64,000 bases of DNA from Sipunculus nudus. Its lineage: Eukaryota > Annelida > Sipuncula > Golfingiida > Sipunculidae. The notes under the pieces are model-generated. The model was given only the letters and a program-made list of their open reading frames with translations. It did not search any database and was not told the DNA's origin. The stretch covers positions 26,733,729-26,797,728 of the forward strand of contig CM049314.1 of NCBI GenBank assembly GCA_026874595.1, written 5' to 3'. Position 1 is the stretch's first letter, and each line of letters starts with the position of its first letter. Below are positions 1 through 56,500 of this stretch, one piece after another. The translations under genes were made by a program, and so were the position numbers.

Positions 1-376
1 TGCAGGTGTATACAACTTGGACAGATTTCTGGATTTGTGGTAGGTGGCACAACCTACATACACATTTAGGCTGCAGACATCCATGCTAATATGCAACATA
101 CCTCACTCTATTTCCCCTTGCCACTCAATCCATGCCTCACTATCCGATTTTGGCAGATACATGTAGTCACTTGTCGGTTACCCGTATTCTAGTTTTAAAA
201 GTTAACACATTTTTCTCTATTTTTGAGATATATAAAAACAGACTAAATCTTGGCCTGTTGGTTAATCTGTTTGATGCTTCAGTTGAATGGGTATTTACTA
301 CCATTCTGGTGATAAAATTTCCTTTTGTGAATCTCTTCCCAGTCAGCTGAGCGTCATGACCCATGGGTCACTTGTT
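1..376 (+). repeat. Right end of a dispersed tandem-unit repeat element
   Basis: Bases 1-190 closely match 45165-45370, and 230-376 match 53400-53530. It ends in the shared tail of this repeat superfamily: CAGCTGAGC followed by the palindrome GACCCATGGGTC and then CTTGTT. The left part of the element lies outside the window. Short open frames here are not coding. Confidence 0.8.
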
Positions 377-6475: not shown

Positions 6476-6890
6476 TTTATGCTTTTCCATGCTTGTCCTT
6501 GCTTTTCCATGGACAATATGGCAGCACGGACAGCATGGACTGGACCTGCACATTTTCCATGGTGTCCATACTGCAGGGAAAAAGGAGTGCCAATACTCCA
6601 TGCTTTTCCATGGACAGTATGGACACCATGGACACAACAGACACAAAGCCGTGCTTTTCCATGGACAGCATGGACACCATGGACACCACGGGCACAAAGC
6701 TGTGCTTTTCCATGGACAGCACAGACACCATGGACAGCATGGAAATAGAAAGCCCTGGTTTTCCATGGACTCCATGCATGTATCAATGAATTTTTTTTCC
6801 ATGTAGCATGGAAAAAGAGTGCCAATACTCCATGCTTCATTTCCATGGAAATCAAGCATGGATTTCCATGGATTTCCATGGAAAGCTTGG
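6476..6890. repeat. CATGG minisatellite
   Basis: Degenerate array of 9-bp units such as CATGGACAC and CATGGACAG, interspersed with TTTTCCATGG. CCATGG is self-complementary, so the array reads similarly on both strands and stays open in several frames. That explains a cluster of overlapping open frames on both strands here, none of which I take as genes. Confidence 0.85.
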
Positions 6891-8402: not shown

Positions 8403-8503
8403 AATGTTGCAGCTGACCATATAGGTCTTGTTAGTGAACGTATGAAGAAAACTGTTAAGACCACAGTCATGCTGGACGAAGCTGTACTGGAAACTGCATC
8501 AAA
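8403..8503 (+). CDS. PKD1L exon 1 of window: juxtamembrane ectodomain
   Basis: Encodes NVAADHIGLVSERMKKTVKT and 13 more residues, plus two bases of a Lys codon. Acceptor TTTCAG, donor GTAAGA. Only this frame is open. It ends in phase 2, which fits exon 17857-18001 and not 20456, so the small exon between them is required. Helical, Lys-rich sequence like this lies upstream of the GAIN region in PKD1-like proteins. It starts at an acceptor, so at least one more exon lies upstream. Confidence 0.8.
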
Positions 8504-11500
8504 GTAAGAGTTCATATGAGATGACCACTGCTGTATATTCTTAGTACTGTCTCAGAATCAATATATCAGATAACTTGAAAGTTCTTATCAGGTGTCACAG
8601 GTTAAGAAGAACTAGATCGATGGCTTGATAAATTTAATCAATTTTCATTCTTCTTTCCTGAAAGATTTAGTACATTTTTTTTACATAATTGATAATTTTT
8701 TTAGCTCAGCTGACTGAAAGTCAACTGAGGTACATGGCACTCTGTCTGTCCGGGCATGTAGCCATCTGTTAGCAGGGCATCATTAACCCTAGAAACTTGT
8801 TACTGAAAAGGTCAGTTTATATAAAATCTCCTTTGAAACCTGAAATTAAGTCACTGCTACCTATTCCACTGAGCTATGTGGTTGGTATGAACCTCCCAGA
8901 ATAATTGAAAATTTGATACAGAACCTCCAGCATATTGATAATTTATGCATTGATTGCCATGAATCTTGTCTTGAATATTGACTATTACTAGTATAGTCAG
9001 TTCCTGAAAACTGGTAGCATCCCCTTTTTTTTTTTTTTATTTTTAGCTCAGCTGACTATAAGTCATCTGAGCTATAGTCGTGGTCCATTGTCCGTCGTCC
9101 GTCTGTCTGTCCGTCCGTCCGGCCGTCCGTAGATGTGGCACGTTTTGAAACCGTAAGACCTAGGAATCCAAAATTCAGCATAATGTTAGATGTCCCCAAG
9201 ATCTCCTACCAAGCCGAAAACTGGGTCTTTGCGACTTCATTCCTTTGAGAAATTAAGGAAAAACCTCAATTTTTTATTAAAAACCTATATTCACACTTCA
9301 GGACTGCCTAATATCAAAACCACTCATCTGTTTTTCCTCATATTTCCTATAAATAATCCTCTATATAATTCCTATGTACATGCCAGAAATTAGGTCTGTA
9401 TTATATAATTTAAAAAAGTTATGGGCCCAAACATAATGCATTTTGTAAATAATCAGGAAAGAAATTTTATCACTTAACACAAAACTTGTTAAAGCTAAGC
9501 ACTTTTTTTCCAGTAATATTACTTTTATTAATCAAAATTAAATTCTATACCCAAAATTAGATCAAAATCTTTTAAATTTTTTAAAATATTAGCAAAAATA
9601 AAAAATTGGTACCTTAAATTTTGCCCAACTTTGACCATGGCACGTTTTTTTGCTGTAACTGCTGTGGATTTAATTTTCACAGCATGTTTTTGTTAGCATT
9701 TCAACTGTTAACACCAAAAATTTGAAACCAGTTGATCAAAAACTGTAGATTTTATTCAAGTTTTCAAGCACCATGTCACATATTGCTAGTGTTATGCAGT
9801 TTGCTAGAGCTCAGCTCCCGAGCTTCAGCTCTAAGTTCCTTAAATTTGGCATACAGTTAGATTTCTCCAAAATCCCCTACCATGCCAAGAATTTGGTCAC
9901 TAGGACTTAATTCCTTCGAGATATCAATGAAAAACTTCATTTTTCCATTAAAAACCCATTGTTACACTTTAAGACTGCCTAATATCAAAACCACTGATAT
10001 GACTTTAATCATAAATAATATACATATTTTTCTATACATTTGCTATGCACATGCCAGAATGATGTCAGTATTGCATAACTGTTTTAAGTTATGGGCCCAA
10101 ACATAATGCACTTTGTAAAAAATCAAGAAATATATTTACTCCCTTAACAAGGACATTGCTGAAGCTAGAGATTTTTTTGTCAGGGATGTAACATTATTTA
10201 ATCAAGATTCAATTGAATACCCAAAATTAGTTCTTAATTTTTCATATTTTATAAGTTATTAGTATAAATATAAAATTAGTACCTTAAATTTTGCCCAACT
10301 GTGACCATGGCACGTTTGTTTCCTGTGAGCACTGTTGATATAATTTTCATATCATGCACACATAAGGATTTCAGCTTTTTAGTTTAGAAAGCTTAAAGAA
10401 ATTGGCCAAATATTGTAGCTTTTATTATGTTTTTTATGAGACCCTGTCAGACTTTGGCTCTCTCCAGCCCCTCTTGAGTCACCTGTATGTTGACCTTGTT
10501 GACCTTTCATCAAATTATGCACGCTTGAGGCGAGAATCCAGGCAGCTTATGGCCAGCCACAGTTGATCCAGGTGTCCAACCCAACTCATCTAGTAGTTTT
10601 AACCAACAACATAACAATAAACAATAAATTAATAAATTTTTATTGGTTTTTAATAACAAATTAAAGAAAAATAGAAAAGGAATTTGTTAGTTTATAATAA
10701 CAGGAAATTAACTTGCAGTTACTGATGATATAAGAATCTTGTATCGATGGGTAGAATGTCACATATTCCAAATAACACCATGCAGTCACCTATGGCATTT
10801 TAAGTTCAATTTTAATGATAAAGAAATAAATCATATTATTCATTACTAATCATTAGGGATTATATGAAGGAAATTAATGATAGACAAAGATGCAGTTGAT
10901 AATATTAATCTAGATTCCTACTGTGTCTAGTGTGTACATTGATGTGAAATAAGTCCAGAATGAATTTTTTACAGTTATTTTTTAATATAAATAAAAGCCA
11001 TAAAACCAGGTACTTATGATCATTATTTAAATGTGTGAATTTATTATATTCTGGATTCTCAACATCATTGTTTGGTGAAAACTGAATAAATACCAGACAT
11101 GGTGCGAATACTTTGTAATTGTATTTAAATATGAATATGATTATGTACTCCATTAAATTTCTTGCATAAAGAATGGGAATTCAGGTAAAAATGAAAGTAT
11201 ATGAATACTCTTGCAAATACTTTCAAAATGTATTCATGAATGCATTCATGAATATATTCTTTAATATTATTTTAATAATCATATCAGTTATATTTCATTT
11301 TAAAAAATCATACGATTCTCTTATTATTTTTAATAAAAATTATATTTGGGACAATATTTGTAATTTTTTTAATAAATAGTTAAACTCTTATATTATATGT
11401 TCTGCTTATAAGTTATATGGCCAAATCAAAATCTGTGTGACAGTAGTACTCCATTTGTTAATAAAATAAATGAAATCAATCCTCTTCCCTGTCTCCAAAG

Positions 11501-14500
11501 GTACTATCAAAATCATACATAAGCTAAACAACAACTCATAATACAGCTTATATTTATTACCACACAAAACCAGCATGTGCCTCATTTCTAAATAATATTT
11601 TTTTATCATATATAACAGCTGAGCGTCGTGACCCATAGGTCCCTTGTTTTTTATTTTTTTATGATTTCTTTTCTATTTTTGAGACCAACAAATGACAGCA
11701 GTTGTGTCAGTTTCTCAGCTGTGGTTTCATCCAGTCTCCTGAAACCCAGAGTGTTATTGATTGTGATTGAATCCTTCAGTTCCTGAAGAATGGTAAAACC
11801 ACATATTTTTTTTAAATTTTTTATGCATTTTCTTTTATTTTTAGCCTACCAAATTATATTGATACTGTTATGGAGTAGGAAAGGGTGTATATGTGACTTA
11901 ACACATATTTAAAGGAATATTTCAATATTTCATTAATTAAGATCTAAAATCATTCAGAAACAATAAAAATCAATCTTGGTTTCAGTCTGTTCTGATATTC
12001 AGACAGAGCCAAAGGAAATTAATGTTCATCAGACGACCAAGTATCTAATGGCAATTCAGTATGTTTGTAGAGCCTAAATGTACTCTCACAAATTAGCTCT
12101 AAATTGGTTTCTATGATGAGGCAGGCAGATTATGTTTATATGAGTTTGGAAATAGCATTGTAGGTCAGTCTATAACTGGATGCATGTCAGGTCAGACTTG
12201 GGATTTTCCATAGAACTTTTGTCCAATCAGATCTCACGAAAGTAGGAAGTACACTTATAACTCTGATGTAATTGTGACCTACTTTGAGTCATCCAATAAG
12301 GTTTAGCTTTTATGACGAAATGCAGAAATATGGATATGTACGTCTCATGTGTCACGTGAAAGCTCTGTAACAAAACGATCTGTAGTGCACTGAGAGTCAG
12401 AGTGAGTCAGGGAGGCTGGGCGGCTCTCTCAGAGAGAGAGACTGTCCCAGATCGCTTGCTATTGAATAAAGACTTCTGTCATCAAACTGGTCTTGGAACA
12501 TTGTCTGCCACAAACACAGCACCCGTATGTGATACAGGTGGGGACATTCCTCTACCCCTCCATCGTATCATTATGGTGGAGACCGGGCCCCGTATCATTA
12601 TGGTGGATGAACCGGGATTCACTTCCAGCACATCAGCACCAGAAAAACTGACAATGCTTCCAGCTGGAGTGAAGAATGAAGATCCCCTCTCGCAACCACA
12701 GGTGCCATTGACTGGTCTACCAACCTATGCATTGGAACTTCAACCCAGGTACTGGATCACAGCCTAACATCAAGAATGCCACCCTGCTGCTGAAGGTATC
12801 AAACTTGCTATGAACTCTCTCTTCAAACTTTAACTTGGCTGCAGTTCTCAGTGCTCTGCTTGTGAAGATCAAAGACTTTCTCTGTATCTTTAAACCAAAA
12901 GAACACTGTAAATCAGCATATTGCTTTAACCGTGACTTCAAGTTGCAAAACTGACATTTTACGCTAAAAAAAAGTGCTGTGAAATCTCAACCTGAGATCA
13001 TCATTGTTCCTGACCAGCCACATAAAAAAAATCAATATCGGGACAAGCCAGCTTTGGGCCTATGTCAACAATACTCCTGGCCATACCACGTGCACTGTGT
13101 GTTATCTCACAACAAGTTCCTCGCTATGTTCATGCAACTGCTAGAACCAGATTTGCTGTTCTACTGCTATCTTCTGCATCACCTTCCATACCATGACTCC
13201 AGGGAGAAAAAGAAGCCAAGTCAGCAGAGAAGACAACAGAAGACCCAAAGAAGACAAGATTTCCTGAGGTAATGAAAAACAAAACCAGAGACTCTGAATT
13301 TTAAATGCCCAATGTAAATTTGGGGCATTTCATAATATTTTGCATGTATATGTTGTAAACAAAAAAAATATGTATGTAGTACAATATAACTTTCTCTTAT
13401 TGATGTGTCATAATTGTAACATGATATAATTTAATGTCTCTGTCTAATTGATATGGTTAGGAATAAGTTTACAAGACCACAGCAAAAGGTGTAGAACTGT
13501 CAATGTTAGATTTGATGCAGTTATGTCTATCTCAGTTGTTAATATGCAATGTCACAAATGGCTGTATTGATTTTAATACAATAATTCCTAGAGTAGAGCA
13601 AAATGCAAAACCATCAGCATGTTAGCATTCATTTATATTGAGATTTTCTCATGTGTTGTTCCATACCAAATCATCAGGTATCGAAATGCTTTCTTGGCTA
13701 TAAATTTTAATGGAATGGTTGCACATTGTGTAACCAAAGCACAATGCGATGCTTATTTTCAATTGTTACAGTTTGGTCCTAAAACACGGGTTCATGGGAA
13801 GCCCTCCAATATATAGGGAATTGGACAAACTGGGGAGTGTGATGACTCCAAAAATCAATAATGCACTGACCTGTGGTCACATTATTGCCTCAACAAGGGT
13901 TGATATGGTTAACCTCATTAATAGCTGGAAATGCCAGGCAAAAACATGCAGGTTAGCCCAGGAATTCTTCTCATAGGAATTCACATTTACATGTCCTAAG
14001 ACAGACATGTTCATGAGCAAATGCATTCTGGTTGCTGCATTCATGATACTGATAACCCATAAACCAAAATGTGGAGTGACAAGGATTTCGATCATTAACA
14101 TTATTCTTTTAATTTACATCATCACTCTACAGATGTATGTTTGATCTTCCACATAAATAGCATGCAATAAAATTACCATCAAAATCCATATATGGTTAGA
14201 TCGATACGTGCAACTGTCAGGGATTTATTTTCATTATCATTACATTTTCACACAACTTTCGCCTTGTTCATGCACAAAAAATGGTAATCAATGGGAATAT
14301 ATGTACAACATTCCTCTGTCGTTAGGAATGACATCATTCTGTCATGTACTTATCCGCTGGTAAGGTACACCAGTTGTGTAATGCTAAAGGATAATTAGCA
14401 AATCAACCTTCCATTATTCACAAGTCAACTTGTCCCAATGGCAAGTATGAAAGTCAAGATGTTTTCTGAATCATTGGTGTTGATCAACACACAGGGCAGA

Positions 14501-17500
14501 TAGTCATGTACATGTGTATGTGTTAAACTCTTAGGAACAAGAGTATATAAACATTGCCAGATTAGGAATTCATCAATTTCTCAATAGGAATTAATTAAGC
14601 TACAGGTTTAATCTGTAATATCAGGCATTGCTACCAAATCCCTTGTCATTTTTTTTAAATACAGATTGTTGTTAGACAGAACATCTTTATATAACATCAC
14701 TTACTGTATGCTAGAATGGTTCACATACTTTGAATTATTCCATTGCTTACACGGTATGCATAGTACTTGTATATTCTAGCTGTGCATTCATTATGAACAT
14801 GATGCTATAATCATATCTATTAAGATATTTATTTATTGATTCTACTTAGATGCTGTCATACATATATAATCTGCTGCTGTACTGCTTATATTAGAATGTC
14901 AAATATCGTCATCATAGTTGCGATGTTGTTCCTGATTTTATTACAAATCAGCATTTTATCTTCTAGATAATGTTTAGGATTGTCAATTCACAAAAAAAAT
15001 TGTCTTTAGAACATATAGGTATAGCTATAGAATTATATATGTTGTTCTCAGCTTATTTAGGACAGCTTAAGCATTGTTGTTGTACTCATATCAATTTAAA
15101 ACATGCACTACTTTATTCCTTACATTGTTACATCTGGAACTGTGACATATGTTCATGTACTTCACATCTATACTGATATGTGTAATCTATTCACCTCAGT
15201 GATGTAATCCCTTACTCTCTACAGACATATATCCATCACATTTTCATTAGTGCTAGCTAAATATATAGTTCTATTCACTATAATGGTATCTGATCTTGCA
15301 GTAAATGCAGACTTAAGCAGAATATCTTGATCTTTACACATTATGTATTTCTGTCATCTACATTCCGGTTATCCTCCTTGAAATAACTCATTTTTCTCTG
15401 ACTTAGCCGATGAGGCCGGAGCCTCATTCTGAATACCAGAGGGATATGTTATGGAGTAGGAAAGGGTGTATATGTGACTTAACACATATTTAAAGGAATA
15501 TTTCAATATTTCATTAATTAAGATCTAAAATCATTCAGAAACAATAAAAATCAATCTTGGTTTCAGTCTGTTCTGATATTCAGACAGAGCCAAAGGAAAT
15601 TAATGTTCATCAGACGACCAAGTATCTAATGGCAATTCAGTATGTTTGTAGAGCCTAAATGTACTCTCACAAATTAGCTCTAAATTGGTTTCTATGATGA
15701 GGCAGGCAGATTATGTTTATATGAGTTTGGAAATAGCATTGTAGGTCAGTCTATAACTGGATGCATGTCAGGTCAGACTTGGGATTTTCCATGGAACTTT
15801 TGTCCAATCAGATCTCACGAAAGTAGGAAGTACACTTATAACTCTGATGTAATTGTGACCTACTTTGAGTCATCCAATAAGGTTTAGCTTTTATGACGAA
15901 ATGCAGAAATATGGATATGTACGTCTCATGTGTCACGTGAAAGCTCTGTAACAAAACGATCTGTAGTGCACTGAGAGTCAGAGTGAGTCAGGGAGGCTGG
16001 GCGGCTCTCTCAGAGAGAGAGACTGTCCCAGATCGCTTGCTATTGAATAAAGACTTCTGTCATCAAACTGGTCTTGGAACATTGTCTGCCACAAACACAG
16101 CACCCATATGTGATACAGGTGGGGACATTCCCCTACCCCTCCATCATATCAATACTATCAGATTCGAAACTGTGGCTTCACCTGTGCCCTGAAACCTTGA
16201 GTGTTTCTGAGGGCCTCTCTTGAAAAAGTGGATGTTCTTTTTATTGTATATCCATCAAATTTGTTTCCTCATGAAAACATCAGTTTGGATTGACATGGAT
16301 TTCAAACTTGACTTGTATATGGACCACCTCTAACACTAGAGCTCTATTGATTTTGGGGTCATAAGGTCAAAGGTCAAGGTCACGTGACCCACTTATTCGG
16401 AAAGATTGTGGATGGATTTTAAGCCAAACTTTTCACCCCAATCCTTCCATCTTGCATATATAGCTGACCTGCCATTAGGGGAAGAACCTGATTAAATTAG
16501 GGGTCACAAGGTCAAGGTCTCTGGGCCATCTGTCCACATATTTGTTTCAAGATGATAACTCAACTTTGAATTGACATATTGGTTTCAATCTTGACTGATA
16601 CATGTTCCATCAATAATGTAAGAACCCCTTTGATTTTCGGTTCATGAAGTCAAAGGTCAAGGCCACAGGACCCACTTCTATAGAAAGATTGTGGATATAT
16701 TTTACGCCAAACTTTTCATCCCAAACCTTCCATCTTCCGGATATTGCTCTCCTGCCAATAATGAAAGGAACTTATGGATTTTGGGGTCCAAAGGTCTAAG
16801 TCAAAGGGTTCATCAATATTTCACATATAAGTTTCCAGTTGATAACACCAGTTTTGATTAATATTGGTTTCAAACAGGACTTCTATATGGCCCACTAATA
16901 ACTATGATGATTCCGGGGTTATGAGATCTAAGGTCAGTGTCACAAAAACCCAATTCTTTCGAAAGATTATGGATGTTTTTTGCGTCAAACTTCATCGCAA
17001 ACCTTCAATCTTCCACATGTGGCACACCTGCCAATAAGAGAAGTTTCTTTTTGATTTTTAGGTCACCAGGTCAAAGGTCAAGGTCACATGGTCCATCCAT
17101 ATAAATATTAGCGTATGGATGATAACTCTAGTTTGATAGACAGGTTAGCTTCAAACTGATCACAGTACTCATATTTTGAAAAAGCTCATAAACATATCCT
17201 TTTACACAAATTCAGCTGAGTGTTGAGACCCATTGAACTCTAGTTTTTTTTTTTTTTTGCAAAATCCAGAATAGCAGGAATACAGTAACTTTAATTTCAA
17301 TTGTTGATGTCAGCTCCTTGAAATACTAAACTAGAATGATATATATACAATATTAAGGTATGTTGTTGCTGTTTTGTTTACTTTAGCCAATGTTCTCTCA
17401 CTGTTGTCACATAAGCAAGACATCTTGATGCAAAATACAATTCTTCCAATCATTACCAAATATGGCTTCCAATATTACTGATATTGTCTTATGTACAATC

Positions 17501-41500: not shown

Positions 41501-44500
41501 GGCCCAAACATAATGCACTTTGTAAAAAATCAAGAAATATATTTACTCCCTTAACAAGGGCATTGCTGAAGCTAGAGATATGTTTGTCAGGGATGTAACA
41601 TTATTTAATCAAGATTCAATTGAATACCCAAAATTAGTTCTGAATTTTTCATATTTTATAAGTTATTAGTATAAATATAAAATTAGTACCTTAAATTTTG
41701 CCAGACTGTGACCATGGCACGTTAGTTTCCCGTGAGCACTGTTGATATGATTTTCATATCATGCACACATAAGGATTTCAGCTTTTTAGTTTAGAAAGCT
41801 TAAAGAAATTGGCCAAATGTTGTAGCTTTTATTAATGTTTTTTATGAGACCCTGTCAGACTTTGGCTCTCTCCAGCCCCTCTTGAGTCACCTGTATGTTG
41901 ACCTTGTTGACCTTTCATCAAATTATGCACGCTTGAGGCGAGAATCCAGGCAGCTTATGGCCAGCCACAGTTGATCCAGGTGTCCAACCCAACTCATCTA
42001 GTAGTTTTAACCAACAACATAACAATAAACAATAAATTAATAAATTTTTATTGGTTTTTAATAACAAATTAAAGAAAAATAGAAAAGGAATTTGTTAGTT
42101 TATAATAACAGGAAATTAACTTGCAGTTACTGATGATATGAGAATCTTGTATCGATGGGTAGAATGTCACATATTCCAAATAACACCATGCAGTCACCTA
42201 TGGCATTTTCAGTTCAATTTTAGTGATAAAGAAGTAAATCATATTATTCATTACTAATCATTAGGGATTATATGAAGGAAATTAATGATAGACAAAGATG
42301 CAGTTGATAATATTAATCTAGATTCCTACTGTGTCTAGTGTGTACATTGATGTGAAATAAGTCCAGAATGAATTTTTTACAGTTATTTTTTAATATAAAT
42401 AAAAGCCATAAAACCAGGTACTTATGATCATTATTTAAATGTGTGAATTTTGTATATTCTGGATTCTCAACATCATTGTTTGGTGAAAACTGAATAAATA
42501 CCAGACATGGTGCGAATACTTTGTAATTGTATTTAAATACGAATATGATTATGTACTCCATTAAATTTCTTGCATAATGAATGGGAATTCAGGTAAAAAT
42601 GAAAGTATATGAATACTCGTGCAAATACTTTCAAAATGTATTCATGAATGCATTCATGAATATATTCTTTAATATTATTTTAATAATCATATCAGTTATA
42701 TTTCATTTTAAAAAATCATACGATTCTCTTATTATTTTTAATAAAAATTATATTTGGGACAATATTTGTAATTTTTTTAATAAATAGTTAAACTCTTATA
42801 TTATATGTTCTGCTTATAAGTTATATGGCCAAGTCAAAATCTGTGTGACAGTAGTACTCCATTTGTTAATAAAATAAATGAAATCAGTCCTCTTCCCTGT
42901 CTCCAAAGGTACTATCAAAATCATACATAAGCTAAACAACAACAACTCATAATACAGCTTATATTTATTACCACACAAAACCAGCATGTGCCTCATTTCT
43001 AAATAATTTTTTTTTTCATCATATATAACAGCTGAGCGTCGTGACCCATAGGTCCCTTGTTTTTGTATTTTAAGAATATTTTTCATTTTTAACTCAGCTT
43101 GCTGAAAGTCATCTGAGCTATAGTGATCACCCTTTGTCTGTCGTCCATCCATTAACCAGGCACAAATCGTAACCACTAGACCTCGAATCTTCTCAATTGA
43201 CATCCTGGGATGTCCATAAAAAATCTCTTTGGAAACCTGAAATTAGGTTTCTGTTACCCATATTGTTTAAGCTATGGGTTCTGAAGAACCCCCCCCCCCC
43301 CCCCCGAATAATGGAAAATTTGATACAAAAGCTCAAGTATCTGAGGAATTAATGCATTGATCACCATGATTATTTGCATGGATATTGATCATGGAGTGTT
43401 TCATCATTTTCTGCAGACTGGTGGCACCACCCGTATTTTTTCAATTTTTTACAATTTTATTTCTCTATTTTTGAGACCTTTAAAGATGCGTTTATCTGTT
43501 AACAGGGCACAAATCGTAATGACTGGACCTGGAATCTTCTAACTTGACATCCAGAGAGGTCCATGAAAGATCTCCTTGGAAACCTGAAATTAGGTCTCTG
43601 TTACCCATATTTTTTCAAGCTATGGGGCTTTGAAGTACCCCCCCCTCCCACCCCCCAGGATAATGGAAAATTCGATACAAAAGCTCAAGTATCTGAACAA
43701 CTAATGCATTGATCACCATGATTCTTTGCATCAATATTGATCATGGAGTGTTTCATCAGTTTCTGCAGACTGGTTGCGACACCTTTATTTTTTCAATTTT
43801 TTACTATTTTTTTCTCTATTTATGAGACCTTAAAAGATGCGGTCATCTGCTGAAAAGGGCACAAATCAAAACGACTGAACCTGGAATCTTTTAACTTAAC
43901 CTCAAGGGAGAACCTAAAAAAGTCTCTGTAAAAAAGTGAAATTAGGTCTCTGTTACCCATATCCTACGAGCTACAGGGCTCGCAATTACCCTCCAGAATT
44001 GTATCTGCCAAAACAAAGTTTTGCGGATACTCTGATTTTGACTGGGTTCCACCGCCGCCTTTTTACCGAAACTTTACACGATTATCGGGTCACATGTGAA
44101 CTGGTGCCAAAATATTTTGCGTTTACCTCTTACCTTTCCTCTCCAGTGTGTCCATCTGTGCGTCTGTTTTGACACATTAACCCACATATCTCAGGAACCA
44201 TTTGACTGATCAGGAAAAAAATGTGCACAAATGTAGCCCTTGGATAGCTTTATAACATACATAAAAAATGGTGGCACCACCTGCAACCATTTTTGCACAG
44301 CGTCCATCTGTTCATATGCCTTGGGAAAAAAAATCACTCATATCTCTGCATTGGTTGGACTTATCCACCTGAAATTTTGCATGTGTATTGGCCTGGACAG
44401 CTTTCTTGATTTTATGACAGGTGGTGCCACCTACATTCAAGTTTACGCTGCAGACATCAAAGCTCATAACTTGGGAACTGTTTGACCGATTAGGCCAAAA

Positions 44501-47500
44501 TTTAGCATGTGTGTAGATCTCACATAGCTTTTTATCATAAAAAAACTAATGGTGCCACCTGCAACCATTTTTGCACAGTGTCTGTCTGTTTGTCTGCCGT
44601 GGGATAAAATCACTCATATCTTTGCAGTGGTTTGACTTACCTGCCTAAAATTTTGCAGGTTTATACATCTTGGATAGCTTTCTGGATTTTGTGGCAGGTG
44701 GCGCAAACTACATTTATGTTTATGCTGCAGACATCCAGCCTTTTTCTCAGGAACCATTTGACCGATTGGGCCAAAATTTTGCATGTGTATAGATCTCACA
44801 TAGCTCTTTTTCATAGGCAGTACTGGTGGCGCCAACTGCAACCATTTTTGCACAGCGTCCATCTGTTTGTCTGCTGTGGGATAAAATCACTCATATCTCA
44901 GCAGTGGTTTGACTTATCTGCCTGAAATTTTGCATGTTTATTCATCTTGGATAGCTTCCTTGATTTTATGACAGGTGGCGCCACCTACATTCACATTTTA
45001 CGCTGCAGATATCCAAGCTCATATCTCGGGAACCCTTTGACCAATTGGGCTAAAATTTTGCATGTGTATAGATCTCATCTAATTCTTGATCATAGGCAAA
45101 ACTGGTAGCACCATTTTTTTGTCTGCCGTGGGAAAAAATCACTCATATCTCGGCAGTGGTTTGACTTTTTGCATATGTATACAACTTTGACAGCTTTCTG
45201 GATTTTGTGGTACATGGCGCAACCTACATACACATTTAGGCTGCAGACATCCATGCTAATATGCAACATACCTCACTCTGTTTCCCATGCCACTCAGTCC
45301 ATGCCTCACTTCACCTGTCCCACTCTGATTTTGGTGGATACACGTAGTCGCTTGTTGACTACCTGTATTCTAATTAAAAATTTGATACTTAAGCTCCAGT
45401 ATCTGAATAACTTATGCATTGATTGCCATGATTTTTTGCCTGCATATTGATCATGGAGTGTTCCATCAGTTCCTGCAGACAGGTGGCCCCATCTTGACTT
45501 TTTTATGAATTTTTACGCATTTTATTTCTCTATTTTTGAGACATTCAAATGAAGCCTCATCTGTTTACAGGGCACAAATCATCACTGTTTGACCCAGAAT
45601 CTACTAACTTTTCATCTAAAGAGGTCCATTAAGTTTTAATGAAAACATGAAATTAGGTTTCTGTTACTCATATCCTTTGATCTATGGGGCTTGAAAGTAC
45701 CCCCAAGATTAATAAAAAATTTGATACAAATTTCCATTATCTGAATAACTAATGCACTGATGGCCAGAATTTTTTGCATGCGTATTGATCATTGAGTGTT
45801 TTATCAGTTCCTGTACACTGGTGGTGCCACCTGTATTTCTTCAAATTTTTTATGTATTTATTCCTCTGTTTGAGACCTTCGAATGAAATGGACTTAGAAC
45901 TGTCAACAAGGCACGAATTATAACCATTGCACCTAGAATCTTCTTACGTCAAATCCTGGGAGGTCAATGAAAAGTCTCCATTATAAACATGAAATTCTCT
46001 GTTACCCATATTCGCCAAGCTTTGTGGCTTGTACCCCCCCTCCCCCCTGGTTAATGAAAAGTTTCAGTATATGAATAACTAATGCATTGATTGCCATGAT
46101 TCTTTGCCTAATTGAGGTTTCATTAGTTCCTGCAAACTGGTGATGCCACCTGTATTTTTATGTCCCCAACCCCCTCCCTACAGGGGAGGCATATTGTTTT
46201 CAGTGCCATTGTCTGTCAATATCGTCCTCATCTGTAGGATATCTTGTGAACATGATAACTTTTTAAGGGCTGGATATTTTCTGCCAAAATTTGAAACACT
46301 TAATTGTTCATTAAAAAATCTTGGAGGAGTTTAAAAAAAAAAACTGGTGACCTTGGCATTCATCTTTAAGGTAAAATCTGGTGGATTTTTTTGTGATCCA
46401 TAACTTAATTTAAAGTATTCCACATTTTGTCCTCAAATTTGGTATTTCTATTGTTCCTTCAAAGTTCTCAGATGATTTTGAAACCCAGTGACCTTGACCA
46501 GGATCTTAAAGGTCAAATCAGTGGAATTATACTTATTGTATTGAGAACACAAAAACCTTTGAAGTATTTCACATTTTGTCCCTAAATTAGGTACACCAAT
46601 TGTTCCTACTAAAATCTTGGAGGAGTTTGAAAGCTGATGACCTTGACCATCATTTTTTAGATCAAATTTGCCGAAATGTAAATTTTTTTAACCCCATAAC
46701 TTTTGAAGTGTTTCACATTTTGTCCTCAAATTTTGAACAACAATTGTTGAAACCAAAATCACGAATGAGTGTGAAAATTGGTGACCTTGACCTTCATCAT
46801 CAATGTCAAATCTGCAGAAATGTGAAATTTTTGTGAACCCCATAACTTTTGAAGTATTCCACATTTTGTCCTCAATTTTGGTTCATCTATTGTTCCTTCC
46901 AAGTTCTCGAATGATTTTGAAACCTGGTGACCTTGACCAAGATCTTCAAGGTCAAATCAGGAGAATTATACTTATTGTGTTTTGAACGTGATAACTTTTA
47001 AAGTATTTCACATTTTGTCCTGAAATTTGTTACACCAATTTTTCCTACTAAAATCTAAAAAAGTTCGAAAGCTGGTGACCTTGACCATCATCTTCAAGGT
47101 AAAGCATTTCACAATTTGTCCTCAAATTTAGTACACCAATTGTTCCAACCTAAATCACAAAAAATTTTATAAATTGGTCACCTTGACCTTCATCTTCAAG
47201 GCCAAATCTGCAGAAATGTGAAATTTTTGTAAACCCCATAACTTTGAAGTATTCCACATTTTGTCCTCAAGTTTGGTTCACCAGTTGTCCCTACCAAAAG
47301 GCTCCTTGAATTCAACTGAGCATCATGGCCTATGGGCCACTTGTTTTTACTACAAAATGACAACAATCATGTCAGTTGCTCAGGTGTAATTCCATCTAGT
47401 GTCGTTAAACCTGGTGTGTTCATTGATCACAAGTGGATGCCCTATAGTAATCACCCTGTCTGTCTGTCTTTCCATCAGTCCACCAACAAAAAATTGTTTC

Positions 47501-50500
47501 AATGATATCTCCAGGTTTAATTGACTTATGGATTTCAAACATGCCTCACATGTGGCCAAACACGAAAGAAAGAACCTTTATGATTTTTTGGTCATTAGGT
47601 CTAAGGTCAAGGTCACAGGACTCAATTTTTTAAAAAGATTATGGCTGCATTTTCAGGCATGCCCAAGCTTTTTATCCCAAGCTTTCCATCTTGCACATCA
47701 AGCTGACTTGCTAGTATTGGGAAAGCATAAATGAATTTGGAGTCAAAGGTCAAGATCACAGGGGCCATCTGTTCACAAATTAGTTTCCAGGTGATAACTC
47801 CAGTTTAGTTTGACATATTGGTTTCAAATTAACCTTATATATGGGCCATCACTAAAGTAAGAAATTTGTCGATTTTGGGGTCCAAAGGTCAAAGGGACTA
47901 TTTCTTTAAAAGAATTGTATATGCATCTCAAGCCATACTTTTCATCAAAAACCTTCCATATTTAAGATATTTTACTCACCAGTCAATAGGGGAAAATTCC
48001 TTCTGATTTGGCGTCATATGGTCAAAAGTCAAGGTCACAGGGCCCATCCATTCACAGATTAGTTTATGGATGAAAACTCTGCTTTGGATGGACAGATTGG
48101 CTTCAAACTCGATTTATTAATGACTTATTTAAGAAATATTTTTCTTTTCAGGGCCTAGAGGTCAAAGGTGAAGGTTACAGGAGCCACATCTTTAAATTGA
48201 TTGTGGATGCACTGTAAATCTAACTTTTCATCCCAAACTTTCCATCTTTCACACATGGCTTACTTGCCCATTGTGGAAGAAATCTTTAAATGTTGAGGTT
48301 ACCTGGTCACAAGATCATTGATTAAGGTCATAGGACCGTCATTCTGGAAAAAAATCTTTAAAATATCCTTATAGGCAAATTCAGCTGAGCATCGAGACCC
48401 CTGGGTCCCTAGTTAACATTTCATTTCAAGAGGAAAATGGCTTGAAAGCACTGAAGAGGCTTCAGATTTTAGCAGAAAGAGTCTACCCAGAATTCCAGTG
48501 TGGTTTGCAATAAGTTCTACTGTAGACATGGTCTTTTCCATCAGGCAACTGCAGGAGAAATGCAGGGAACAAAGACCACCACTGTTCAAGGCCTTCATAG
48601 ACCTGACAAATGGGTTGAACTTGGTGAGAGAGGAACAGTCTCTTCATGATCCTCCCTAAGACTGGATTTCAGCCTTAGCACTTCAGCATCATTAAGTCCT
48701 TTCATGATGACATGAAAGGTACTGTGTTTTTTGACAGCGCAACATCAAACTTTTGTGAAGTGAGGTAAAATAAGACTGAGTCCTTGCACCGACCCTGTTC
48801 CGCAACTTCGCTGTCTTGCTGAAGCATGTTTTTGGATCCACTACCGATGGTTTCTACCTCTGAACCAGGTCAGACTGGAAACCCTTCAACCTCTATAGGC
48901 CAAGAGCGAAGTAAGTTCATTTGAAGAGTGTGTGGAACCTCCTCTTTGCAGACGATACACAAACTACACTGCTGAAGACCTGCAGACATTCATGTCCCAA
49001 TCCAGTGCATCCTGTCAGGCCTTTGGACTTACGATCAGCCAGAAAAGAACAGCAAAAGATGGGACAGGATGTGGACATGCCACCGGACATCAGAATCTCA
49101 GATTACCATTTCGAAGTCATGCAAAGACTGAAGACTTCATCTGCCTAGGCTCAATGATCTCGGAATCCCTCTTCCTTGAGACTGAGCTGAACAAGGGGAT
49201 AGGCAAGGCAGCCACCACCATGTCCAGGCTGACCAAGAGAGTGTAGAACAACAGCAAGCTGACAGGACACACCAAGATCTAAGTCTACAGAGCCTGTGTT
49301 GTGAGCACCTTGCCGTATGGCAGTAATGCCTGGCCATTATGCACCCGGCAGGAGCATAATTTTAAAATATTCCACGTGCGCTCATTGCACTGTCTCTGCC
49401 GCATACATGGCATCTGCAGGCAGGATAAAATGTCAAACACTGCTGCCATGAATAGAGCTGAAATCCCAAGCATGTATGCCATATTCAAACAGAGATACAC
49501 GGGATGGCTCAGACACGTCATGGGAATTGCGAAGGCCGCATCAACAAGGATCTCTTTTACGGTGAACTGGTACAGGGAGCACCCCGTACAGGTAGACAAA
49601 GGTGTCTGCAAGAGAGACCTGAAGGCCATGGGCATCAAACTGAACAACTGGGAAGCCACCACCTAAGAACGAACAATCTGGAGGCAGATAGTACTGAAAG
49701 GCCTCACCAGGTTCGAAGAGACCCTAGCTCAACAATTAAAAGCCAAGAGACAGAAGAGGAAAGCCAGAGGCGAAACCGACAGAACAGCATCAGAGTGTCA
49801 GTGTACTCGCTGTGAAAGAAAGACTGCCACTCCCGCATTGGCCCGACCAGACCACACAAGATGCTGATCCAGAACATTCATCCAGGGCGCAACTCCATAG
49901 TCTCCTAGACTAAAGGATGCGTGCTTACTTATTTTCCAACAAAGATGTTTTCTGCCTCTCCAGATTTATTGTTAAATTCCAAAACAGAGTTCTGGATATC
50001 TCATTTTATGCCATTTTGAAAGAAACTTTCCTCTAACTCGGTTAGACTAAAAATCGTCAGTACCCATGCAAAAATATTTCTGTATAATTCAACAGCTGTT
50101 GCTACATAATAGTTAAGTAGGTATTCGTTAACAGCTAGTTACCAACTGGTTCAGATTTTCGCATGCAAATCGAGAACTGCTAGGTAATGAATATTCATGA
50201 ATCTCCCCTAACAACTTGAGGTACATCATATAATGAGGACATAAACTTGTGAAGTTATTGCTAGGTTGTGAAGTTGAAACGTTATGAACTAATTGAAAAG
50301 TTTTAAAGCTGCAGCAAAGCTTAACTGCAACTTAGCGGCTACTTTACAACTTATAGACTTACAACCTAGCAACTTATACAAGACCACTTGACAACTTCTT
50401 AACATCTTTGCAGCTTAAAACGACTTTGTTAAATCATCAGTGCATGGTTTGCAAGTTCTTTATGCCTTCTTCATGACTTATCAGCTTCTTTATAGCTTTG

Positions 50501-53500
50501 CAGCTTCTCTACGGCTTTGTAGTTTCTTTATGGCATTGCAGTTTCTTTACGGCTACGTAGGCTCCTTAAGGCTTTACAGCCTCTTAACAACTTATGTTCA
50601 TTAAGTACATTCTAATATTGTAACAAGTAAATATTTGCAGAAAGAGATTTAATTTCTCTCTATAATGAACAAATAAATGATGGTATACGACTCTTAATGG
50701 GCTTTGGACAAACTTGTATACCAATTAGCTGTATTGTAGCCAGTCAGCTAAAATACGGGAACTAAAAATGATTGTTATCATGTGGCTATATCAACAACAA
50801 AAAATGAAGAAATTGGTAATAAAGATTTATTTACTTGAGGTGGGTCATATAAAGAAAACAGTGCTTTAAACACTATTTATTATCACTAAAAAAGCTGATC
50901 TCAAAATAATTAATTCTATGTCACTAATATTTATCATGTTACAGTTTATGTTCAACCCTGACCTCCATCTGACTGCATAATTATCATTCCCTTCAGTTGA
51001 CCATGATGAATCCTAAAACAAGACAAAATTCAATGAACTCTTTTTGCTTTATATATTTAGTTCTACTTATTAACAAATAATGAACGCTTAAGAAACCAAC
51101 TATTAAAACAAAATAGATTAGCAATATTACTTGAATTTTTATACATTGCATCATGTGTATAATACTGCAGTGATATAAGCACAATAAAGTTTAATATACC
51201 AATATAAAAATGTCACTTTTTGCACAACCAAATTTGACAAGATAACACGTAAACTGAAAATATGGCAATTAATACTGATTAGTGACTAGTACATGGCCAT
51301 AGATACACAGCTTGTTTTTAATTGCTGTTAAACTGATAATTTTTATCAGTTTTGCAAATACAAAATGTACATTTGTTATGGTATGAACTTAGTTTTTGCT
51401 TTTAAATAAAAATTAAATTTAATGCTACACTTTCTGTGTATTAAATTACTTGTTGAAAAATCACTTGTATCAGTGCCCAGTGATCACCACTTGTCCACGT
51501 TTGCTACTGAAGCCCTTGGTGTACCTATATGTAGTTCAAACTTTCTGGTGGTAAGTAACATTAACAGCCACTCCTGGTCCTCCCATCAAGTGATTGTATG
51601 TTCTAATTAATCCAATGAGTCCTCTGAACATGCTGGATCCATCAAATGTTACTCTTACTTGGCTTCCTTGTTGAAGATCTTCATTTTTTAGCTCAGCTGA
51701 CTGTAAGTCATCTGAGCTATAGCGATCACTCTTTGTCCGTCGTCCGTCCGGCCGTCTGTACGTTAACAAGGCACAAATTGTAACCACTGGACCTGGAATC
51801 TTCTTACTTTACATCCAGAGAGGTCAATGAAAAATCTTCTTGGAAACCTGGAATTAGGTCTCTGTTACCCATATCCTTTGAGCTATGGGGCCCCAAAGTA
51901 CCCCCCAGAATAGTCAAAAATTTCATACAAAAACTTCAATATCTCATTAACTACATCACTGATGGTCATGGTTTTTGGAATACACATTGATCATGAGATG
52001 TTCCATCAGTTCCTGCAGACTGGTGGCGCCACCTGTATTTTTTTATTTTTTAAGAATTTTTTTCTCTATTTTTGAGACCTTTAAAAATGTGATCATCTGT
52101 TAACAGGGCACAAATTGTCAAGTCTGGACTTAGAATCTTCAATCTTGACATTCTGAGAAACCTCTGAAAAGTCTCCATGGAAACCAGAAATAAGGTCTCT
52201 GTTATCCATATCCTTTGAGCTATGGGTCCCCAAATTACCCCTCAGAATAGTAAAAATTTCATTAAAAAACTTCAATATCTCATTAACTACATCACTGATG
52301 GTCATGATTTTTGGCATACCTATTAATCATGAGATGTTTCATCAGTTTCTACAGACTGGTGGCGCCACTTGTATTTTTTATGAATTGTTTTCTCTTTTAT
52401 TGAGACCTTTAAAAAATGAGCATCTGTTAACAGGGCACAAATCGTAAAAACTGGACCTAGAATCTTCATTCATGACATTCTGAGAGACCAATGAAAAGTC
52501 TCCATGGAAACCTGAAATTAGGTCTCTGTTACCCATATCCTTTGAACTGTGGCACTCCAAAGTACAGCTCAGAATAATGGAAAATTTGGTACAAAAGCTG
52601 AAGTATCTGAACAACTAATGCAGAGATCACCATAATTGTTTGTATTGATATTGATCATGGAGTGTTTCATCAGTTTCTGCAGCCTGGTGGCACCACATAT
52701 ATTTTTCCAGGCTTTTTTTTCGAAATTTTTTCTTTATTTTTTTAGACCTTTAAAGATATGAACATCTGTAAACATGGCACAAATCGTAACAACTGGACCT
52801 AGAATCTTCATTCTTTACACACAGGGAGACCCATGAAAAATGGAAACTGGAAATTAGGTCTCTGTTACCCATATCCATTAAGCTGTGTGGCTCCAAAATA
52901 CCCCCCAGAATAATGAAAAATTTGATACAAAAACTCAAGTATCTCAATAACTACAATACTGGTGCTCATGATTTTTGGCATACATATTGATCATGACATG
53001 TTCCATCAGTTTTAGCAGACTGGGTGTGCCACCTCTATTTTTTTTCAAATTTTTACAAATAATTTTCTCTATTTTTGAGACCTTTAAAGATGTGGTTATC
53101 TGTCAACAGGGTACAAATTGTAATAACTGGACCTAGAATCTTCATTCTTGTCATGCAAGGAGGCCCATGAAAAGTGTCTGTGGAAACCTGAAATTAGGTC
53201 TCTGTTACCCATATCATTCAGGCTATAGGACTCATAGGATACAAAAGCTGAAGTATCTGAACAACTAATTCAGAGACCACCGTGCTTCTTTGCATGGATA
53301 TTGACCATTAAGTGTTTTTATTAGTTTCTGCAGACTGGTGGAGCCACCTGTATTTTTTTTAAAGTTTACACATTTTTTCTCTATTTTTGAGATATATTAA
53401 ATAGACACAATCTCAGCCTGTTGGTTAATCTGTTTGATGCTTCAGTTGAATGGTTGTATACTACCAAAATTTCCTTTTGCAAATCTCTTCCCAGTCAGCT

Positions 53501-56500
53501 GAGCGTCATGACCCATGGGTCACTTGTTCTTACAACAGCTGGAAAGGCACCTTTTCCCAATTTTGAAAAGGTGGCTACTGATCCCTCCAAAATCAATTTA
53601 GCCAATCACAGCAGAGTAAGACAGGAAATTACTGTCTAATGGTTTCAGGTAGTGGCTAGAATTCATTTAAGCTGTTATCCAGTTGCTTAAACTTCCACTT
53701 CATTTGCTAAGTAATTGCTAAGCACTGCCATCTTGAGCTTTAGGCTGCTAACTGAAGTTCTCAAGTGAAAAATTGACAGTTAGCTAACGGCTAGTTTATG
53801 GATAACTTGCCGTGAACTAGCAGTTAACTAACGGCTACCTCACAATTGGAAAAATATTTTGCCTGGGTATGTATCTTTTTTGCCTGGGTATGTCTTTCTG
53901 TGATTATTTTTTTTTTATTATTGAAACAATAACATTCCACCTTGTTAACAGTTTTGTGTGATTAATTTGTGCATGTATATAAGCCAGATTTAGTTCCTCA
54001 GAATGTATGTTTATTTGCAAGACTTTAGTCATTGGTGTGTATATTAGCCAGATTTGAGTCAGTCTCACTCTGTTTATTATGGCTTTTTCAAGAATCTAAT
54101 TATTTGTAAAAAGAAGTAAGGCTTGCCGTTTCTTAAAATATTTATTGAAAATTCTGAAATCTAGGTTAATTTTAGCCCATTCCGTATGAATTATATATTT
54201 TAAAACCAGATAGTTACTAATTAATAACTGGAAATATACCAGTGACACGTGCTAAATTTGGCAAAAAGAACAATTAGGTGTTACTCTGTCATTCATGTTC
54301 TTACAGATGCTAGTGAGGAGCTGTTGCACTATGAAACCATACGGCGGTATTTGAGCCGTCAGAAAGTGGAAAAAGACCATTCTATCTACACACCTCCCTC
54401 TGATGAGCACGTCATCAATGTAAGGAGAAAACTACTACGACACCAAGAGGCGAGGGACATTCTGCGGGAGATATTTGTATATGGTCTTTTTTTGGTGGTG
54501 CTGTGTATAGTGGTCTACGGACATAATGACCACCATGCATTTCCCTACTTTTCAACTACCAAAAGTGTATTCCTTGATGCTGGATATGCTGGTGTCACGA
54601 GGTTTGAAGAAGTAAGTAAACTGAATAATTAGAGCCTCGCTTCAATAAAGGCTAATGCCCTATAGTTATCACTCTGTCCGCCCATCTGTCCGTCCTTAAA
54701 TTCGTTTCCGTATGATAAATCCACTTTCAGTTCACATATATGGATTTCAAACTGAATATATAAATGGCCCACCGCTAAAGCAAGAACCCTATTGATTTTG
54801 GGGTCATGAGGTCAAAGGTCAAGATGTCAGGCTCCCATTTATAAAAAACATTGTTGATGCATTTTCAGCCAAACTTTCCATGCCAGTCCTTCCATCTTAC
54901 ACATATATGACACCTGCCAACAGGGAAACAACTCTACCATTCCTTGGGTCACAAATTCAAAGGTCAAGGCCATAGAAGTCATCTGTCCACAAATTCATTT
55001 CCAGATTATAACTCTACTTGGAATTCACGTATGGATTTCAAACTTAATATATAAATGGCTCAATACTAAAGCAAGAACCCTATAGATTTTGGGGTCATGA
55101 GGTCAAAAGTCAAGGTGTCAGGACTCGCATTTATAAAAACTTTATGGCTGCATTTTCAGCCAAACTTTCCATGCCAGTCTTTCCATCTTACACATATATG
55201 ACACCTGCCAACAGAGAAATATCTAGGGGTCACAGGTTTAAAGGTCAAGGTCACAGGAGCCATCTGTCAACATATTCATTTCAAGATGATAACTCCAATT
55301 GGGATTCACTTATGGATTTCAAACTTGATTTTTATATGGCCCAACACTAAAACAAACATCCTTCCTCATTTAGGGACAGGAGGTCAGAGATCAAAGTCAC
55401 AGTCCCCACATCTCTAAAAGGATTGTGGATGCATTTTAAGCAAAACCCTTCATATAGAGGTTCTATCTTAATCATACAGCTCACCTGCCAGTAGGCAAAT
55501 ACATGTATATCTTTCCCTTTTCGGGTCACAAGGTCAAAGGTCAAGGTCACAGGAGTCATCTGAATTAATTTCAAAAACCTTTCATTAATCCAGTTTGGTT
55601 TAATATATTTATTTCAAACTTTCCATCTTGCTTCAGTGTTTAAATACCGTTTTCGGTCAGTTTCCTCTGCTCTGCATGTGATCAGGTCTTTTATTATATT
55701 TTTCCAACCATCACTCGGTCTACACTAGGGTCTATGGGCCTTCAGCAAGGCCCTTCCTGACATGCCAACATCACCCAGAATTTCGGGGCATATATAGGCA
55801 TCATGTGGTTCCTCACATCCGTAATGAGTCTGTCAGAGGATGCTTCCAGATAGGGAATTTAGATCTTTTCCCCAGCGTTTCAAGGGAAGGACATTTAATT
55901 TTTTTTCCTCAGACCATACTCCCATCTTTCCGAAATAAAGTGGCCAAAATTACTTGCTGAACTCTGTAAAGTTGAATTTTCTTTAACTGTGAAAGTGTTA
56001 CGTTCCATTCAGCTTACTTCCCTGTGGTGTGCACTGTAGTACTGATAATCATTGGATCTTCATGTTATCATTACTAATGTTATATGCCCGTCTATGATGG
56101 GACGTATTAGATTACCTGCGGTCGGCCGTCCATTAACTTTTAGTGTGGCCGTGAAAACTTACCAGGACTTTGATGGATTTTCGCGAAACTCACCATAACG
56201 ACATACCAATAAATCATCTCGCTCGAGATCCATTATGGGCAAAGCCGCACATAGTTAATAGGTTAGAGATAAGGCTACCTTTTGGTGTTGCCACGATAAC
56301 TTAGGAGGAATACAATGGGTATTGATAAAACTAGACAGAAATATTAACCAATATAATATCTCGCCTAAGTTTGATTTCGAACAAAATCCACGCATATCTA
56401 ACGAGACTTTGTTAGCACCATGGTGACTTACCATAAATCTTATGGATTTTCATGAATCTCATTATACATATTTACCAATAAAGTATTTTTACCTCATTTA

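What the first reader, a model, noticed from the sequence alone, without database searches (positions are those of the whole stretch)
8702..53530. Different repeat interiors share one tail and related heads: a candidate mobilisation system
The head is a hairpin AGCTCAGCTGACT...AGTCATCTGAGCT followed by CTATAG and GTCCGTC. The tail is CAGCTGAGC plus the palindrome GTGACCCATGGGTCAC and CTTGTT. GCTCAGCTG in the head is the inverse of CAGCTGAGC in the tail. About eleven tails (near 360, 11630, 17230, 28355, 29640, 32275, 35160, 43045, 47330, 48400, 53515) close blocks with different interiors: 335-bp units, 277-bp units, 146-bp units, AGGTCA units, the 2.6-kb module. Short subterminal inverted repeats, a 3' hairpin, central tandem arrays and T-rich flanks recall Helentron-associated (HINE) elements known from bivalves and other animals. 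That assignment is inference.
Basis: partly seen in the sequence, partly recalled or inferred. Interest (0 to 1): 0.7.

Follow-up and report, generated by a model that had tools for sequence, protein, structure and literature searches.

The report
Helentron ends with their helper found
The repeated heads and tails are the two ends of a very abundant family of rolling-circle transposons in an animal genome, and the same genome holds longer copies with the same ends that carry a transposition gene and the same satellite-like repeats.

Summary
The window has 12 tails (11 on +, 1 on -) and seven + heads within 8 and 7 mismatches; chance gives almost none. The 1.43-Gb genome has 21,700 tails and 30,943 heads within 1 mismatch; reversed controls gave 0.

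The HINE reading is supported. Three copies of a 15-16 kb element begin with this head and end with this tail, where their homology stops. The one read throughout encodes Rep, Pif1 helicase and a weak endonuclease match, with Helentron-type Rep residues. Their 5' leaders carry the window's 335-, 149- and 277-bp repeats. Six of nine Rep loci followed downstream have the tail.

Empty sites show insertion in T-rich DNA; a TT duplication is not excluded. One copy with a damaged first palindrome ends, by six empty sites, at a second tail 45 bp on.

Correction: one tail subtype goes with the 2.6-kb interior in 13 of 13 sampled copies, others in 0 of 14.

Oyster HINEs with satellite-like cores are known; new here are the autonomous partner, unresolved there (PMC7492417), and the shared repeats.

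The parts
344..376 (+). tail, 0 mismatches, end of an element whose part at 1-194 is 83% like the end of the 277-bp array (element runs off the window start)
8703..9044 (+). head (4 mismatches) and 335-bp-unit remnant of an older element, cut by the next element
9045..11648 (+). 2.6-kb HINE (module subtype): head 0 mismatches, GTCC run, tail GTCGTGACCCATAGGTCCC; inserted in the T-rich linker of a 335-bp unit
17213..17245 (+). decayed tail (8 mismatches) closing a block (16257-17157) related to the 281-bp units at 54739; no head found
26518..28372 (+). older HINE: decayed head at 26518, start of interior 75% like that of the 2.6-kb module, tail 28340-28372 (4 mismatches)
28384..29657 (+). HINE, decayed head (7 mismatches), tail with 2 mismatches; 29358-29507 is 72% like the 3' region of the Helentron at C7 (L049)
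32258..32290 (+). orphan decayed tail (8 mismatches)
35144..35176 (+). orphan tail (4 mismatches)
40080..47345 (+). composite HINE: outer head 40080, one 335-bp unit, [insert 40430-43061], internal head 43091, 335-, 277-, 335- and 149-bp arrays, tail 47313-47345 (ATGGCCTATGGGCCAC)
40430..43061 (+). second copy of the 2.6-kb HINE, nested in the element above
47437..48414 (+). block related to the 281-bp units at 54739, no head found, tail 48382-48414 (3 mismatches); the start coordinate is that of the similarity
51690..53528 (+). HINE with 335-bp units, head and tail both 0 mismatches; T-run before the head

Best explanation
Heads and tails are the 5' and 3' ends of Helentron-associated (HINE) rolling-circle transposons. 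Shown by sequence: longer copies in the same genome carry the same head and tail and (read throughout in one copy) encode a Rep/helicase/endonuclease protein; their 5' leader holds the same satellite-like arrays as the HINEs; copies sit in T-rich sites with clean empty-site counterparts; one copy ends at a second tail behind a first one with a damaged palindrome. Inferred: the Rep nicks at the T-run in front of the head, peels off one strand to the 3' palindrome, which acts as terminator, and joins it into a T-run elsewhere. HINEs keep the ends (and often the 5' arrays) and are moved in trans by autonomous copies. Each subfamily has its own tail variant. New combinations arise by nesting in the T-rich linkers of the arrays and by read-through to a neighbouring tail.
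For: Head and tail at the limits of homology of three long copies. Domains in the C17 ORF: Helitron_like_N 2e-27, PIF1 4e-23, Herpes_Helicase 9e-8, Exo_endo_phos 2.7e-4 (below the curated cut-off); the last is 2e-13 in a second family. Rep motif VEFQQRGSPHIH with S, and FYR just before it, the Helentron signatures given in PMC4067079. The PDB entry of the Helraiser transposase, 7lcc, matches the helicase part, 1.4e-13. 335-, 149- and 277-bp arrays in the 5' leader. Empty sites: both 2.6-kb copies of the window and 6 of 12 sampled copies; six uninterrupted paralogous sites for the C10 long copy. Head hairpin folds at z -3.75 and -4.51. Tails on 6 of 9 Rep loci followed downstream.
Against: No window HINE is a recent deletion product of the long copies: arrays are 67-86% alike, and outside head and arrays only about 35 bp at the tail match. 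The 2.6-kb module shares about 90 bp of head with the C17 element and a tail differing at 4 of 33 bases; no autonomous parent for it was found. Three of nine Rep loci followed downstream had no such tail, and 30 Rep loci seen with 1.5 kb on each side showed neither head nor tail (too short a stretch to expect them). The tail hairpin alone does not fold better than shuffles (z -1.45 to +0.09 in six tails) and its covariation is slight. In C17 the endonuclease match stops before its SDH motif; the open frames around Rep are shorter in C5 and C10 (1124 and 676 aa against 2342), and about 5.5 kb of the middle of C5 and of C10 was not fetched. So no intact copy was shown. Activity was not tested. 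A TT duplication cannot be excluded. Four of six window elements, 6 of 12 sampled copies and, locally, all three long copies had no informative empty site.
Confidence: 0.92

Rival explanations
1. The tandem arrays were captured from host DNA by HINEs (filler DNA) and reached the autonomous Helentron later, so the autonomous element is not their source.
For: Array identity between HINEs and the C17 copy is only 67-86%. A 335-bp array covers about 3.1 of 3.4 kb downstream of a Rep locus, without a tail (L042). PMC7492417 discusses the filler model.
Against: All three long copies carry the three arrays in one order behind the same head; the HINE 40080-47345 shares the double head and all three arrays, though in another order.
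Confidence: 0.35
2. Cut-and-paste MITE-like transposon with inverted repeats and a TT target duplication.
For: TT stands on both sides of AGCTC...CTTG, and empty sites have two fewer Ts in the clearest cases (L054 against L065, L056).
Against: The inverted repeats are subterminal, the ends are asymmetric (hairpin at one end, palindrome at the other), and the same ends flank a Rep/helicase gene. Only Rep loci were examined; other transposases were not searched for.
Confidence: 0.03
3. Satellite DNA and segmental duplication rather than transposition.
For: Many copies are nested in, or made of, tandem arrays; strand runs on C1 could come from duplication.
Against: Flanks of sampled copies differ, ends are base-precise, and empty sites exist.
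Confidence: 0.02
4. A universal tail exchanged freely between interiors by recombination.
For: The subfamilies share about 33 bp of tail; C10 carries two different tails 45 bp apart.
Against: Tail subtype predicts the interior: 13 of 13 against 0 of 14, Fisher 5e-8.
Confidence: 0.1

Closest known systems
Cg_HINE elements of the Pacific oyster (PMC7492417; passages, section 7, and part 1 of 2 of section 10 read)
   Same: 5' subterminal inverted repeat with adjacent complementary repeat, GTCC/GTCY microsatellite, satellite-like central arrays, 3' inverted repeat plus palindrome, T-rich sites, no target duplication; related ends around unrelated arrays; some elements with two arrays
   Different: There ten autonomous Helentrons could not be related to the HINEs. 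Here three long copies share head, tail and three arrays with HINEs. Monomers here are about 149-352 bp against 140-180 bp on average there. Sequences were not compared.
DINE-1 and mite HINEs with their Helentrons (PMC4067079; passages, sections 6 and 7 read)
   Same: Rep/helicase/endonuclease with S in motif 2, subterminal inverted repeats, 3' stem-loop, at least two Ts on each side of an insertion
   Different: Mite HINEs are 84-99.9% identical deletion products of their Helentrons. Here HINE and the C17 copy match at 67-86% in the arrays and over about 35 bp at the tail. No RPA match in the two ORF pieces of the C17 element scanned.
Helraiser (Helitron of bats; PMC4778049, passages read)
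   Same: 3' hairpin as terminator; read-through to a new 3' end when it fails, as inferred for the C10 copy
   Different: Canonical Helitron ends (TC / CTAG), no endonuclease domain (recalled), different terminal sequences
Pearl / CvE, MgE and DTC84 of bivalves (named in PMC7492417; sequences not compared)
   Same: Short central tandem arrays between conserved ends, as described there
   Different: Not tested here

Membership tests
HINE / Helentron | Subterminal inverted repeats at both ends | tested here: met
   GCTCAGCTGACT in the head against AGTCAGCTGAGC in the tails at 344 and 53496; CAGCTGAGC exact in 13 of the 18 tails aligned
HINE / Helentron | Inverted repeat next to the 5' subterminal repeat, and a short microsatellite (as in DINE-1, Cg_HINE) | tested here: met
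   head hairpin z -3.75 and -4.51; GTCC runs at 9090 and 40475 and GTCC/GTCT runs in the three long copies
HINE / Helentron | 3' palindrome able to form a stem-loop | tested here: inconclusive
   palindrome present; standard pairs in 78.9% of cells on 15 distinct tails against 75.3% in shuffles, 3 double-change cells; folding energy no better than shuffles. The C10 copy with a damaged palindrome ends at the next tail
HINE / Helentron | Insertion in T-rich sites, TT at both sides, no target duplication | tested here: met
   empty-site pairs; a TT duplication is not separable from element-borne TT, an ambiguity PMC4067079 also describes for terminal Ts
HINE / Helentron | Autonomous element with Rep, Pif1 helicase and C-terminal endonuclease sharing the termini | tested here: met
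   C17 read throughout; C5 and C10 by Rep match, both ends and 3' part. 6 of 9 Rep loci followed downstream carry the tail; heads were fetched for 3. The C17 endonuclease match is weak (2.7e-4)
HINE / Helentron | Helentron-type residues at Rep motif 2 (S before P; F/Y x R upstream) | tested here: met
   FYRVEFQQRGSPHIH in C17
HINE / Helentron | RPA gene in the autonomous element | tested here: inconclusive
   not among Pfam hits of the two C17 ORF pieces; the rest of the element was not scanned
HINE / Helentron | Rolling-circle transposition itself | not testable with these tools
   needs an assay of circles or mobility
canonical Helitron | 5' TC, 3' CTRR, insertion between A and T | tested here: not met
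   elements end in CTTGTT and sit in T-runs
TIR transposon / MITE | Terminal inverted repeats and a target duplication | tested here: not met
   inverted repeats are subterminal, no duplication beyond a possible TT

The most novel reading that the evidence does not exclude
The strand on which these elements insert is set over hundreds of kilobases, as if the single-stranded intermediate entered one template strand at replication forks (as reported for bacterial IS200/IS605 in PMC5371812, passages), so that about 30,000 heads would be a fossil map of fork direction. On C1 0-12.6 Mb, tails 20-100 kb apart share strand in 52 of 72 pairs (0 of 2000 shuffles reach it) and 100-300 kb apart in 107 of 169 (1 of 2000), falling to one half beyond 600 kb; for consecutive neighbours 20-200 kb apart it is only 39 of 62. 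A sparser set of heads on 12.9-36.8 Mb gave 34 of 59 pairs within 300 kb (811 of 5000 shuffles reach it), so it is not replicated. Duplication or nesting could explain part of it.
Probability: 0.1. Interest if true: 0.8.

Novelty: new member of a known kind. Interest (0 to 1): 0.52.

Why it matters
HINEs with satellite-like cores are thought to spread tandem repeats through bivalve genomes, but for the oyster the enzyme source was left unresolved and the origin of the repeats was open between capture and formation from the element's own sequence (PMC7492417). Here gene, ends and repeats are found in one element. That makes both questions directly testable and links dispersed satellite-like DNA to one rolling-circle system with over 20,000 recognisable ends. 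The C10 copy is a natural case of a Helentron whose damaged terminator was, it seems, bypassed and replaced by a neighbour's.

Tried and rejected
Free exchange of one tail among interiors: rejected by subtype-interior linkage. The 43091 head as an element start: rejected; with the 2.6-kb insert left out, the region is colinear with the double-headed 5' end of the long copies. Tail hairpin as a stable fold: not supported by energy; covariation is slight and partly one lineage. Local excess of T-runs as the cause of the + orientation in the window: in eight stretches between the main blocks, T5+ and A5+ runs are about equal, 128 against 114. Strand domains: strong on C1 0-12.6 Mb, not significant in the next stretch. 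In one search the 0-20 kb row counts each tail with itself; without that it is 18 of 22. An autonomous parent of the 2.6-kb module: not found among the nine Rep loci followed. Empty sites for the C17 and C5 copies: none in the DNA held, and the genome searches did not complete. The one spanning match for the window element at 28384 is a match of its neighbour's tail to its own tail and was dropped. Window ORFs of 130 aa or more: 10 listed, 6 scanned against Pfam, only one sub-threshold match; 4 not scanned. A paper search for Helitron with Herpes_teg_N gave none, nor did Helitron with lagging strand and insertion bias.
Full report
WHAT IS THERE. Thirty Markov windows gave no tail at 9 or fewer mismatches. 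The genome holding the window (unnamed, 1.43 Gb, 153 contigs, window on C9) has 10,873 + 10,827 tails and 15,247 + 15,696 heads at up to one mismatch; the patterns read backwards gave 0.

ELEMENTS IN THE WINDOW. Clear head-to-tail units are 9045-11648 and 40430-43061 (the 2.6-kb module, two copies), 51690-53528 (335-bp units), and 40080-47345, which contains the second module. Older ones are 26518-28372 and 28384-29657. The blocks 47437-48414 and 16257-17245, related to the 281-bp units at 54739, have a tail but no head that I found. The element 40080-47345 has two heads, 40080 and 43091, one 335-bp unit apart once the insert is left out; the three long copies below have a double head too.

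THE AUTONOMOUS PARTNER. Helitron_like_N gave 143 matches in this genome (150 of 195 candidates scored) and none in 14 control genomes. Thirty of these loci, seen with 1.5 kb on each side, show neither head nor tail, as expected if the gene is long. I then fetched 3.4-9 kb downstream of nine. Six carry a tail: C17:35630192, C5:42912065, C10:71600289, C8:29994604, C7:71189229 and C3:10575424; three do not: C11:50385293, C2:7643210, C8:36631795. For C17, C5 and C10 I also fetched the upstream side; about 5.5 kb of the middle of C5 and of C10 was not fetched. Homology among them (94-98% in the main segments seen) starts at TTTTT|AGCTCAGCTGACT and ends at ...CTTGTT. The C17 copy is 14,885 bp (C17:35,625,477-35,640,361, minus strand); from their coordinates C5 and C10 are about 16 kb. 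In C17's own coordinates: head 1, 335-bp units 94-1589 with an internal head at 725, 149-bp units within 3672-4358, 277-bp units within 5280-5655, ORF of 2342 codons from about 6835 to 13860, tail 14853-14885. The ORF holds a Herpes_teg_N-like domain (E 2e-12), DUF6570, Helitron_like_N, PIF1 and Herpes_Helicase matches, and a weak Exo_endo_phos match. The Rep motif reads FYRVEFQQRGSPHIH, which has both features that PMC4067079 gives as Helentron-specific. C5 and C10 keep the endonuclease SDH motif, but their open frames around Rep are shorter (1124 and 676 aa); the match in C17 stops before that motif. I make no claim that any copy is intact.

THE REPEATS BELONG TO THE HELENTRON TOO. The tandem units that fill the window's HINEs match the leader of the C17 copy: 335-bp units up to 79%, 149-bp up to 85%, 277-bp up to 83%; C5 and C10 have the three arrays in the same order. 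In the HINEs examined the arrays are 67-86% like C17; outside head and arrays they share about 35 bp of tail, 97-100% alike in 8 of the 11 with a tail match and 80-88% in 3 (13 examined, two without a tail match at that threshold). So the HINEs of this window are not recent deletion products of these copies but older members of the same group. Whether the arrays began in the Helentron or were captured first is not settled.

SUBFAMILIES. From the first 100 tails listed on C1 (of 21,700; the first 12.6 Mb) I took every fifth (20) and the seven with the autonomous-type tail. By the best match in the 1.2 kb before the tail, all 13 with CATAGGTCCC have the 2.6-kb module; of the other 14 none does (335 units in 7, 277 in 4, 281 in 2, none in 1; four of these by only 102-230 bp; Fisher 5e-8). 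In 11 of the 13 the head lies 2.59-2.63 kb upstream. Thirteen module copies (these 11 and the two in the window) are 94-99% alike, median 96%. The C8:29994604 Helentron has the tail palindrome ATGGCCCATGGGCCAC, one base from the window's 47313 tail ATGGCCTATGGGCCAC; both have G-C where the other subfamilies mostly have an A-T pair. C7 and C3 have the GCCGTGACCCATGGGTCCC type, close to the window's 29625 tail.

ENDS AND EMPTY SITES. Both window modules lie in the T-rich linker of a 335-bp unit, and units without the insert read straight through. Of 12 sampled copies with both ends (11 modules and one short element), six have a spanning match among DNA held: L052, L054, L056, L060, L061, L064; the other six do not, nor do the other window elements (apart from one false match) or the three long copies. 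The clearest are CAACCATTTTT|GCACATTTTG (L054, against L057 and L065, 95-96%; L057 reads A for the last T), GCTTTTTTATT|GCAGTATC (L056, against units of the same tandem array, 97%) and L061 (88%). No base is lost; beyond a possible TT nothing is duplicated. PMC4067079 describes a like ambiguity of terminal Ts.

A NATURAL TERMINATOR BYPASS. The C10 copy has its own tail with a damaged palindrome (CCCATTGG instead of CCCATGGG) and 45 bp later a second tail of another subtype, preceded by TATCATATATAA, the sequence before the tail of the window's first 2.6-kb module. Joining the left flank to the sequence behind the second tail gave six uninterrupted sites elsewhere, 97-98% over all 219 bases, while C10 itself is split there. 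Five of the six hits are one base longer than the query, as expected because I had left out one T (the C16 one is two longer); the repeat of the search with that T did not complete. The unit inserted at this site therefore ends at the second tail. The simplest history (inferred): an ancestor landed just in front of a module's tail and on its next move ran past its own defective terminator. Helraiser does this more often when its hairpin is deleted (PMC4778049, passages).

STRUCTURE. The head folds strongly (z -3.75, -4.51). The tail does not beat shuffles, and pairing on 15 distinct tails is only modestly above control (78.9% against 75.3%, 3 of 500 shuffles reach it). The bypass case says more for the palindrome than folding does.

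AGAINST PRIOR WORK. PMC7492417 describes the same anatomy in oyster, reports T-rich sites, no target duplication and empty sites, and states that ten autonomous Helentrons could not be related to the HINEs. In my searches for Helentron or Helitron with bivalve, oyster or mollusc terms (13 listed; 18: 9 listed; 61: 15 of 48 listed) I saw no paper that names an autonomous partner for a mollusc HINE. I judged this from titles, starts of abstracts, and passages of four (PMC4067079, PMC7492417, PMC11136912, PMC12628747); the rest were not opened, and the library lacks most subscription journals. The species is not known to me; HINEs of oyster type and large contigs numbered up to C17 suggest a mollusc (inference).

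ORIENTATION. Neighbouring elements tend to share strand on C1 0-12.6 Mb. The next stretch of C1, with a sparser set, does not confirm it. I keep it as a lead only.

Noticed in passing
G000:C1:96416-1146475 and further (heads; tails): Very long strand runs: 55 of 56 listed heads on - from 96 to 1146 kb, then 8 on +; not significant in a sparser set on 12.9-36.8 Mb.
   Followed up: partly
window 11861-12573 and 15443-16154: Direct repeats of about 713 bp, 99.2% alike, 3.6 kb apart, starting TGTTATGG and ending TATCA, with ATAC on both outer sides: looks like an LTR retrotransposon.
   Followed up: partly
L037:1-2874 (-), C17 Helentron ORF: The N-terminal part matches Herpes_teg_N (E 2e-12) where the other Helentron family of this genome (L035) has an OTU protease match.
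   Followed up: no
L035, L036 (C11:50385293), L041 (C2:7643210): A second Helentron family: DUF6570, PIF1 and a strong Exo_endo_phos match in the C11 copy; none of the tails in 9 kb (L036) or 3.4 kb (L041) downstream, no head in 5 kb upstream (L035): its ends probably differ.
   Followed up: partly
L042 (C8:36625400-36628800): A 335-bp-unit array over about 3.1 of the 3.4 kb fetched downstream of a Rep locus, with no tail in it.
   Followed up: no
L050:471-680: The 3' end of a Helentron (99% like L049 up to its tail) abuts a 335-bp unit followed by another tail 177 bp on: nesting of one element in another.
   Followed up: partly
window 37791-38068: Four copies of a 69-bp in-frame repeat in a 163-aa open frame without Pfam match.
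   Followed up: no
window 25424-26071: Open frame of 216 aa with a sub-threshold GPS (GPCR proteolysis site) match, E 0.0015.
   Followed up: no
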